Assembly (NCBI RefSeq): GCF_032925565.1
Contig: NZ_CP136708.1
Coordinates: 4,278,001 to 4,342,000, forward strand
Reading direction: 5' to 3'
DNA length: 64,000 bases
DNA from: Alteromonas sp. CI.11.F.A3
Lineage (GTDB): Bacteria; Pseudomonadota; Gammaproteobacteria; Enterobacterales; Alteromonadaceae
Shown here piece by piece: positions 13,223 to 14,695 of this stretch. The translations under genes and the position numbers were made by a program. The notes beneath the pieces were generated by a model. That model saw only the letters and a list, made by a program, of their open reading frames with translations, was not told the origin of the DNA and made no database searches. Every line of letters starts with the position of its first letter. The first letter of the stretch is position 1.

Positions 13223-13240
13223 TTAGTATAAATATTCAGT
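13223..13240. promoter_or_regulatory. Weak ARG-box-like site
   Basis: AGTAT-AAAT-ATTCA resembles the ArgR consensus TGAAT-WWWW-ATTCA with one perfect half-site (ATTCA) and three of five in the other. It lies 69 bases upstream of mgsA and 100 bases before the tandem pair ahead of argC. The AT-rich context makes chance matches likely. Confidence 0.35.
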
Positions 13241-13339: not shown

Positions 13340-13378
13340 TTAAAATATTTATACATTTTTATTGCATAAATATTCCAT
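13340..13378. promoter_or_regulatory. Tandem ARG boxes (ArgR operator) upstream of the arg operon
   Basis: Two 18-bp ARG-box-like sites sit 21 bp apart (13340-13357 and 13361-13378), the spacing of classical paired ArgR operators. The downstream box TGCAT-AAAT-ATTCC matches eight of ten consensus half-site positions; the upstream box AAAAT-ATTT-ATACA is weaker (about seven of ten). A -10-like TATAAG (13378-13383) abuts the downstream box, consistent with ArgR-arginine repressing initiation. Confidence 0.65.
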
Positions 13379-13448
13379 ATAAGTAAACTAGGCGACGGTT
13401 AAGGCATCAAACCCATTTTTAGGGTTGATACAGACACAGGAAGCACCG

Positions 13449-13574
13449 ATGACACAACCAACTCTCGTTCGTGGTAGTAATACTGGGAACGTCAATGAGT
13501 TAACCTCTCCCCTGGATAGCTGCACATTGCATTGCTTGCGACGACGAATGTCTGCGAATATGCTTTTTCGGTAG
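13449..13574 (+). CDS. Putative arginine leader peptide upstream of argC
   Basis: A 41-codon frame starts at ATG 13449 with a well placed AGGAAG (13438-13443, seven bases from AGGA to the ATG). It encodes a peptide with an Arg at codon 8, three consecutive CGA arginine codons at 13539-13547 (context CLRRRMS) and a final CGG arginine codon directly before TAG (13572-13574). The stop is 2 bases before the first arm of a long terminator-like hairpin. This is the layout of amino-acid leader-peptide attenuators. No such control is standard for argC in E. coli, where ArgR repression dominates. The peptide resembles no protein I know, so its meaning may lie in its translation. No clear antiterminator was found by eye. 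Confidence 0.5.
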   Translation: MTQPTLVRGSNTGNVNELTSPLDSCTLHCLRRRMSANMLFR

Positions 13575-13576
13575 CA

Positions 13577-13658
13577 CACTTTTTACCTTTGTAATGTGGT
13601 AGCGGTTAGGCAAGGAATTACGCCAAATCAGTTTACAAAGGTAAAAAGTGATTTTTTT
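13577..13658 (+). terminator. Candidate attenuator: 18-bp perfect hairpin with T-run directly before argC
   Basis: CACTTTTTACCTTTGTAA (13577-13594) is the exact inverse of 13633-13650, with a 38-base loop, and is followed by ATTTTTTTCT. The structure is a long if AT-rich intrinsic terminator. It ends only about 24 bases before the argC ATG, too close for another sigma-70 promoter, so argC transcripts must either read through it or start inside it. No Shine-Dalgarno sequence is visible between it and argC. Confidence 0.65.
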
Positions 13659-13681
13659 CTCCATTTATTGAATTTCTCATT

Positions 13682-14695
13682 ATGTATAACGTATCGATTA
13701 TTGGTGCCAGTGGTTACACCGGCGCACAGCTAGTTCAATTAGTTCATCAACATCCTGCTTTGTCGCTTGATGGGACTTATGTCTCAGAAAATAGTGCCGA
13801 TGCAGGCAAAAACATTGCGGCACTTCATGGCAACCTAGCCCACCTCAACTATACGTTGACGCCTATTAGCAATGACATATTAGTAGAGTTGGCAACCAAA
13901 ATGGACTTTGTGCTGTTGGCGACTCCTCATGAAGCTAGTCACGATTGGATGGAAACCTTGTCTGCGGGCAAAGCGAAAATACTAGATTTATCTGGTGCGT
14001 TTAGAATTAAAGATACCCAAGTCTTTGAGCAGTTTTATGGCTTCCCTCATACCGCGAAGGCGAGTTTGCAAGAGGCGGTATATGGGCTAGCTGAATGGTA
14101 CGAAGATGATATTGCACAAGCAGATATTATTGCCGTACCTGGCTGCTACCCTACTGCCAGTTTATCCGCGCTGAAACCTTTGGCTGCTAATGGCTTACTG
14201 GATAACGCGGTTCGCCCTGTGATCAATGCGGTATCGGGTGTATCCGGTGCGGGTAGAAAAGCCAGCCTAACGTCAAGTTTCTATGAAGTAAGCTTGCAAG
14301 CTTATGGCGTACTTGGCCATCGTCATACACCAGAAATTGAAGCTTATTTAGCAACCCCGGTTATATTTACCCCTCATTTAGGTAACTTCAAACGGGGCAT
14401 ACTTGCGACGGTTACGGTTAAACTAAATAAAGGCGTGACCAGCGCTCAATTAGATGCCGCCTTTACCGAAGCTTATACTAATGCGCCTTTAGTAAGATTA
14501 CGTTCAAGTTTTCCAAAGATTGACGATGTGGCGCATACGCCTTTTGTTGATTTACACTGGAAGCTTGATGAAACATCTGGTTATGCAGTAGTGACGGCAG
14601 CTATCGACAATGTCATGAAAGGGGCTGCATCACAGGCCATTCAATGCCTTAATATTATGACTGCCCAGCCGGTTGAAACAGGACTCGTGCAATAA
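13682..14695 (+). CDS. argC: N-acetyl-gamma-glutamyl-phosphate reductase
   Basis: ArgC reduces N-acetylglutamyl phosphate to N-acetylglutamate semialdehyde with NADPH, the third step of arginine synthesis. The 337-residue protein opens with the Rossmann motif [14 protein letters not shown], has the catalytic Cys in [10 protein letters not shown] and the conserved [16 protein letters not shown] and [13 protein letters not shown]. Its start is fixed by family alignment, although no ribosome binding site is visible. It leads argCBFGHA; its stop overlaps the argB start by one base (TAATG). Confidence 0.95.

What the first reader, a model, noticed from the sequence alone, without database searches (positions are those of the whole stretch)
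13449..13658. Candidate arginine leader-peptide attenuator ahead of argC
A 41-codon ORF with a strong, well spaced AGGAAG encodes three consecutive Arg codons (CGA x3) plus a terminal Arg codon and stops 2 bases before an 18-bp perfect hairpin followed by seven T. The hairpin ends about 24 bases before argC, so no room remains for a downstream promoter. This is the architecture of trp/his/leu-type attenuators, but for arginine, where ArgR repression is the textbook control in gammaproteobacteria. I found no clear antiterminator by eye, and argC lacks a visible ribosome binding site, so the element might act on translation or differ mechanistically.
Basis: partly seen in the sequence, partly recalled or inferred. 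Interest (0 to 1): 0.75.

Follow-up and report, generated by a model that had tools for sequence, protein, structure and literature searches.

The report
Arginine attenuator locked to CGA-CGA codons
In front of the arginine-making genes of this marine bacterium and many relatives sits a tiny gene whose one constant feature is the same rare codon pair for arginine (CGA-CGA), probably a sensor that lets the genes be read only when arginine runs short.

Summary
A 41-codon ORF (13449-13574) with an AGGAAG Shine-Dalgarno, CGA codons, an 18-bp hairpin and T7 lie between ARG-box-like sites and argCBFGH-argA. All 30 same-genus (Alteromonas) loci examined, the window included, keep an ORF with in-frame CGA-CGA. 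A sequence-only alignment of 53 loci supports the terminator (15 of 18 pairs with two-sided changes) and, more modestly, a protector hairpin P1 around the codons.

Between families the peptides share nothing else by eye. In the host genome the only tRNA found that can read CGA is tRNA-Arg(ACG); CGA pairs are slow in a his-leader assay (PMC4046918, passages).

Best explanation: ribosome-mediated arginine attenuator with a codon-locked stall site, on top of ArgR. Stalling, termination and arginine response are inferred. No conserved antiterminator was found, a conserved RNA motif is unexplained, and several lineages lack a convincing intrinsic terminator.

The parts
13340..13378 (+). Two ARG-box-like 18-mers, 13340-13357 and 13361-13378, 3 bp apart; overlap the putative -35
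   Evidence: 13/16 and 14/16 to the recalled consensus; a third 14/16 match lies at 13223-13240, and 14% of shuffled genus regions reach 13, so single matches mean little; the block is conserved in the genus; ArgR gene in the genome
13362..13389 (+). Putative promoter TTGCAT-16-TAAACT
   Evidence: read by eye and conserved in the alignment (15 loci); not returned by the stricter scan; TSS not mapped
13438..13443 (+). Shine-Dalgarno AGGAAG of the leader ORF
   Evidence: SD-like site in 28 of 30 genus loci
13449..13574 (+). Leader ORF, 41 codons and TAG
   Evidence: over the stretch tested the leader frame is open in 28 of 30 genus loci, the other frames have stops in 22 and 28 of 30
13506..13523 (+). 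RNA motif UCUCCCCUGGAUAGCUGC (consensus by eye UCCCnUGnnUnGCUAY); its last 5 nt are the 5' arm of P1
   Evidence: conserved including third codon positions in A4; no pairing partner found for its first 13 nt
13539..13544 (+). Conserved CGA-CGA codon pair, proposed stall site (a third CGA follows at 13545-13547)
   Evidence: 95 of 162 argC loci, 28 of 50 genus/family groups
13519..13575 (+). P1 protector hairpin: GCUGC 13519-13523 with GUAGC 13571-13575, enclosing the CGA codons
   Evidence: 78.9% of cells paired, 20 two-sided-change cells, covariation score 0.164 (0 of 500 shuffles reach it; slid versions at most 0.116); two of five measures do not beat shuffles
13577..13658 (+). Intrinsic terminator: arms 13577-13594 / 13633-13650, U-tract 13652-13658
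   Evidence: -29.3 kcal/mol hairpin; two-sided changes in 15 of 18 pairs
13682..14695 (+). argC, first gene of argCBFGH-argA (to 20337; genes after argC named from their translations, recalled)
   Evidence: argC over the TIGR01850 cut-off

Best explanation
The element is a ribosome-mediated arginine attenuator for argCBFGH-argA, downstream of an ArgR-type operator. A ribosome translates the short leader ORF on the nascent RNA. With enough charged tRNA-Arg(ICG) it passes CGA-CGA, leaves, P1 and the adjacent terminator fold, and most transcripts end before argC. When charged tRNA-Arg(ICG) is short, the ribosome lingers on CGA-CGA, P1 cannot form, the terminator fails more often and RNA polymerase enters argC. 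CGA, a codon that the ICG tRNA reads poorly, is kept rather than CGU/CGC because it makes the stall site sensitive to this one tRNA. Shown here: conserved ORF, codon pair, P1 and terminator; no tRNA-Arg(UCG) among the tRNA genes found. Inferred: translation, stalling, termination, the link from lost P1 to read-through, and the response to arginine.
For: In-frame CGACGA ORF in 30 of 30 genus loci and 95 of 162 order-wide argC loci, versus at most 4 of 160 for any other Arg-Arg codon pair. Arg codons outside the pair in the same 95 ORFs (taken from the leftmost ATG): CGC 27, CGA 22 (18 of them directly following the pair), CGT 19, CGG 18, AGA 15, AGG 10; CGA is 10.9% of 758 Arg codons in 40 window ORFs of 200 aa or more. 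Terminator and P1 covary. 76 of 95 loci have a hairpin of -8 kcal/mol or better before a U-rich tract by a lenient scan run without a shuffle control. In one unnamed family (f16, 5 of 5) and one Alteromonadaceae locus (L134, g71) the CGA codons lie inside the 5' arm of the terminator, so a stalled ribosome would cover it directly. All 62 tRNA genes found were typed: Arg ACG x2, TCT, CCG, CCT (150 of 309 first-look candidates were scored). PMC4046918 (passages): CGA-containing Arg pairs in a his leader relieve attenuation strongly.
Against: No expression data. The downstream region does not fold better than shuffles as an antiterminator in the window (z -0.56, 48 of 200 shuffles as good), and neither the RNA motif nor the P1 3' strand has more complementarity to the rest than shuffles on average. 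The motif is unexplained. P1 support is modest: only three of its seven pairs show two-sided changes, and a version slid by -3 columns has more two-sided cells (23) though far fewer paired cells (54.1%). Seven of seven Glaciecola-like loci (g31) lack the pair, and by eye several have lost the ORF while P1-like and terminator elements remain. Families f2 and f25, parts of f6 and f12, and some Alteromonadaceae loci (L095, L109, L140, L146, L150, L294) have the codon pair but no convincing intrinsic terminator. Ten of 18 families sampled lack the pair. In another leader (Salmonella orf34) CGACGA and CGCCGC both supported arginine regulation (PMC6386406, passages), so codon identity did not matter there. 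Relatedness inflates counts of loci.
Confidence: 0.8

Rival explanations
1. The leader acts through something other than intrinsic termination: stalling at CGA-CGA controls Rho access, RNA decay or argC translation, as in Salmonella orf34-speF; the hairpin is secondary.
For: argC has no Shine-Dalgarno-like site in 30 of 30 genus loci; several lineages keep the codon pair without a convincing intrinsic terminator; orf34-speF works through Rho and RNase G (PMC6386406, passages).
Against: In the Alteromonas-like group the terminator covaries over 53 loci with a U-tract right after it.
Confidence: 0.12
2. The 5' region is an RNA-only sensor (riboswitch-like) built on the UCCCnUGnnUnGCUAY motif and P1; the ORF is a passenger.
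For: Motif conserved at third codon positions and still recognisable in Glaciecola-like loci whose ORF looks lost by eye.
Against: No Rfam family at gathering score in the window, only five sub-threshold matches near the leader; in families outside f1 the motif is not seen by eye while the in-frame CGA-CGA ORF stays.
Confidence: 0.04
3. An arrest peptide: the nascent chain itself stalls the ribosome with arginine as ligand.
For: Within Alteromonadaceae a loose L-x-x-[YF]-x5/6-R-R pattern is seen by eye.
Against: Between families only Arg-Arg is shared (by eye) and the codons, not just the residues, are fixed; third positions are conserved in the motif.
Confidence: 0.03
4. An unrelated small protein gene with its own terminator sits by chance before argC.
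For: Short ORF plus terminator alone would look like this.
Against: Same position before argC in 28 of 50 groups with unrelated peptides; no + strand sigma-70-like promoter between hairpin and argC in the simple scan.
Confidence: 0.01

Closest known systems
trp/his/leu/ilv leader-peptide attenuators (recalled; his leader assay in PMC4046918, passages)
   Same: Short leader ORF with cognate codons, protector hairpin around them, terminator before the first gene of the biosynthetic operon
   Different: Arginine; two conserved regulatory codons, always the same synonymous codon; no conserved 2:3 antiterminator found; ArgR-type operator upstream
Salmonella orf34 (SpeFL) of speF (PMC6386406, abstract and passages)
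   Same: Two consecutive Arg codons in a leader ORF tune expression to arginine
   Different: Its codons are AGG CGG, it carries DUF2618, works by Rho, RNase G and RBS occlusion, and controls ornithine decarboxylase; the leaders tested here match no Pfam or NCBIfam model
Fungal arginine attenuator peptide (recalled)
   Same: Arginine-responsive upstream ORF on an arginine-pathway mRNA
   Different: Eukaryotic nascent-chain arrest acting on translation
Yeast inhibitory CGA-CGA codon pairs (PMC6301793, start of abstract in the listing)
   Same: The identical codon pair impedes ribosomes
   Different: There an inhibitory pair in yeast reporters (recalled), here a conserved regulatory position

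Membership tests
Ribosome-mediated transcription attenuator | Short translated-looking ORF in the leader | tested here: met
   (SD, conserved frame); translation itself not measured
Ribosome-mediated transcription attenuator | Codons for the end product at a conserved place | tested here: met
   CGA-CGA
Ribosome-mediated transcription attenuator | Protector (1:2) hairpin including the codons | tested here: met
   P1; modest: three of five measures exceed all 500 shuffles, two do not (400 and 177 of 500 reach them)
Ribosome-mediated transcription attenuator | Intrinsic terminator (3:4) before the first gene | tested here: met
   for the window and the Alteromonas-like group; not for all lineages
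Ribosome-mediated transcription attenuator | Mutually exclusive antiterminator (2:3) | tested here: inconclusive
   possible folds in some loci but mostly not better than shuffles
Ribosome-mediated transcription attenuator | Response to charged cognate tRNA | not testable with these tools
   needs expression experiments
SpeFL/orf34 leader | DUF2618 peptide before speF | tested here: not met
   no Pfam match; gene is argC
Known riboswitch, T-box or leader family in Rfam 15 | Match to a covariance model at gathering score | tested here: not met
Arrest peptide | Conserved nascent-chain sequence | tested here: not met
   only Arg-Arg shared across families, by eye

The most novel reading that the evidence does not exclude
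A codon-locked attenuator: evolution has fixed the synonymous pair CGA-CGA because it must be read twice in a row by the inosine wobble of tRNA-Arg(ICG). The leader would then report the decoding capacity of that single tRNA (charging, and possibly its A34-to-I editing), not arginine in general, and the same codon pair would drive different downstream switches in different families: protector plus terminator, codons inside the terminator arm, or terminator-independent control.
Probability: 0.4. Interest if true: 0.85.

Novelty: new variant of a known kind. Interest (0 to 1): 0.72.

Why it matters
Arginine biosynthesis in gammaproteobacteria is taught as ArgR repression; a conserved argC leader in 8 of 18 families sampled would add a second, translation-based sensor. 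The near-absolute choice of one synonymous codon pair in otherwise unrelated peptides is a natural experiment on why leader peptides choose particular codons, and gives a direct test of whether I:A wobble pairs are used as regulatory stall sites in bacteria.

Tried and rejected
Antiterminator: folding the RNA downstream of a stalled ribosome gave possible alternative stems in some Alteromonas loci, but their energies are ordinary against shuffles in 9 of 11 sequences (z between -1.00 and +0.72; L021 -1.57, L023 -2.39) and the P1 3' strand has no excess complementarity (mean z -0.11 over 53 loci). Partner for the UCCC motif: six downstream stretches and the upstream leader, none better on average than shuffled motif. 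GGUAG:UUACC and GCGU:ACGC as antiterminators: seen by eye in some loci, not conserved, dropped. Peptide-level constraint on the N-terminal half: 17, 17 and 18 of 18 columns vary by codon position in the 20 genus loci with equal length. Known families: Rfam, NCBIfam and Pfam without a match. The pair upstream of argC outside the order: 0 of 28 loci; the E. coli K-12 argE-argC gap has no CGACGA. A T-box reading was considered and dropped for lack of any model match. Literature searches without an argC leader-peptide report in their listings: (open-licence PMC only). Term-searched papers: PMC2965389, PMC1262725 and PMC2659441 hold no 'argC'; PMC1382215 holds argC but no 'leader' or 'attenuat'. 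Supplementary tables were not open to me.

Full report
What is there. The window is an Alteromonas-type chromosome (the host genome is one 4.66-Mb contig; the best named ArgC match is Alteromonas sp. MMG017, 100%). Between a minus-strand ORF that I take for mgsA (recalled) and argC lies a leader with, in order: two ARG-box-like sites 3 bp apart overlapping a TTGCAT-16-TAAACT promoter-like pair, an SD and a 41-codon ORF with CGA CGA CGA at codons 31-33, and an 18-bp AT-rich perfect hairpin with T7 that ends 23 nt before argC. The ARG-box evidence is modest: an equally good match lies at 13223-13240, and 8 of 30 genus regions have no match above 12 of 16 within the 330 bases scanned.

Conservation in the genus. 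A DNA search of 60 relatives gave a match in 33 of 35 same-genus genomes at E <= 0.001 (G023 and G031 had none, and G031's element was found with the RNA model). In the 30 loci taken from that search (the window's own included) every one has CGACGA in frame in a short ORF (searches show them); an SD-like site precedes the leader ATG in 28 and argC in 0. The spacing between the conserved Tyr codon and CGA-CGA changes by whole codons. Over the stretch tested the leader frame is open in 28 of 30 and the other two frames have stops in 22 and 28 of 30. The N-terminal half shows no codon-position bias, so the peptide sequence there hardly matters, as in known leader peptides (recalled). The terminal Arg is present in 16 of 30.

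Structure. Covariance model R1 (25 of the 30 sequences) found the element in 51 of 395 family genomes at E <= 0.1, including all 32 same-genus ones; two of the 51 are weak, E about 0.06-0.07. For an alignment not fitted to structure I took 53 of 72 full-length matches (76 loci searched); left out were 8 near-identical rows and 11 others (one near-duplicate, ten weaker or more distant), which may favour the structure. On it the terminator pairs in 94.8% of cells with two-sided changes in 15 of 18 pairs; P1 (GCUAY.. with ..RUAGC) pairs in 78.9% of cells, with 20 two-sided-change cells against 10.7 in shuffles and a covariation score of 0.164 against 0.123 (0 of 500 shuffles) and at most 0.116 when slid. 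Two further measures for P1 do not beat shuffles (400 and 177 of 500), the two-sided changes fall in three of seven pairs, and the version slid by -3 has 23 two-sided cells at 54.1% paired. P1 and terminator are separated by one base, and P1 encloses the CGA codons. The stop codon often lies in the 3' strand of P1 in the genus, but directly after the pair in the eight Paraglaciecola leaders and within about one codon in the eight Aliiglaciecola leaders.

The codon pair. I then read 330 bases upstream of argC in 162 loci from 18 families of the order (30 genus loci; 60 other Alteromonadaceae loci; the rest). Families and loci were chosen by me from the best ArgC matches, not at random; repeat fetches (L031-L090 and most of L170-L244, largely the same genomes) and distant ArgC homologues L167-L169 were left out. 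Counting all Arg-Arg codon pairs in short ORFs that stop before argC, CGACGA occurs in 94 of the first 160 loci; the next, CGACGC, in 4. With L164 and L299 added it is 95 of 162, in 28 of 50 groups and 8 of 18 families: f1 72/100, f2 3/4, f6 6/7, f10 1/2, f12 4/4, f15 1/1, f16 5/5, f25 3/5; none in f3, f5, f8, f9, f11, f14, f18, f20, f21, f23. One f1 hit (L146, g76, 78% complete genome) has the same peptide as f2 and may be contamination. Controls: mean 0.8 of 162 in 20 mononucleotide shuffles, 2 of 162 antisense, 0 of 39 before other window ORFs, 0 of 30 before carA (where CGC-CGG is in frame in 14 of 30), 0 of 28 argC loci of other orders. By eye the peptides share nothing else between families (for example MHTLKLRR, MNRFSWFRRDSI, MFCHLICNRRRISA). 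Loci are not independent, so the group counts are the safer ones.

Why CGA. The same ORFs use all six Arg codons elsewhere, and CGA is 10.9% of Arg codons in 40 window ORFs. All 62 tRNA genes found in the genome were typed; the Arg ones are ACG x2, TCT, CCG and CCT (150 of 309 first-look candidates were scored), so CGA would be read by the ACG tRNA through inosine (general knowledge; PMC10454642, abstract start in the listing, which also reports the editing enzyme non-essential in B. subtilis). In a his-leader assay CGA-containing Arg-Arg pairs gave strong de-attenuation and CGA was read more poorly than CGU/CGC (PMC4046918, passages). Against this, orf34-speF kept its arginine response with CGACGA or CGCCGC (PMC6386406, passages).

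Different switches. A lenient scan without shuffle control finds a hairpin of -8 kcal/mol or better before a U-rich tract in 76 of 95 loci. In the Alteromonas-like loci printed there the terminator arm starts 21-33 nt after the codon pair. In f16 (5 of 5) and in L134 (g71) the CGA codons are inside the terminator's 5' arm, so a stalled ribosome would directly block it. In f2 and f25, parts of f6 and f12 and a few Alteromonadaceae loci no convincing intrinsic terminator is seen.

What does not fit. No conserved antiterminator. The motif UCCCnUGnnUnGCUAY is conserved down to third codon positions; it is still recognisable in Glaciecola-like loci, where the codon pair is absent in 7 of 7 and the ORF looks lost or reduced to one CGA codon in several; it has no partner. 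So the step from a stalled ribosome to read-through in the window is inferred, not shown.

Verdict. A real, conserved arginine leader of the ribosome-mediated attenuator type, with a codon-level signature that I met in no listing of the searches made. New variant of a known kind.

Noticed in passing
13506-13523: RNA motif UCCCnUGnnUnGCUAY, conserved at third codon positions in the 53-locus alignment; partner and role unknown.
   Followed up: partly
L111-L113, L117 (Glaciecola-like): Leader ORF lost or lacking the CGA pair while P1-like and terminator elements remain; by eye ACACTC near the motif could pair with GAGTGT in the loop of a strong hairpin (pseudoknot-like).
   Followed up: no
L282-L284 (family f25): After the CGA-CGA ORF the stretches GCCCCU / AGGGGC / CCCCUU would allow two mutually exclusive stems without a U-tract: possibly a different switch (by eye).
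   Followed up: no
L154 (family f2): First CGA of the pair reads TGA, so the leader ends as MNRFSSF; relatives have MNRFSWFRRDSI or MNRFSSFRRDSI.
   Followed up: no
L398, L400, upstream of carA: A hairpin AAAUGAG..CUCAUUUUUU precedes carA in Alteromonas, and CGC-CGG is in frame in a short ORF in 14 of 30 carA regions; possibly a separate attenuator.
   Followed up: no
L097 (Paraglaciecola): Lacks motif, codon pair and terminator by eye although its genus mates have them.
   Followed up: no
13659-13681 and relatives: argC has no Shine-Dalgarno-like site within 20 nt in 30 of 30 genus loci, only a pyrimidine-rich stretch ending mostly in TTATG.
   Followed up: partly
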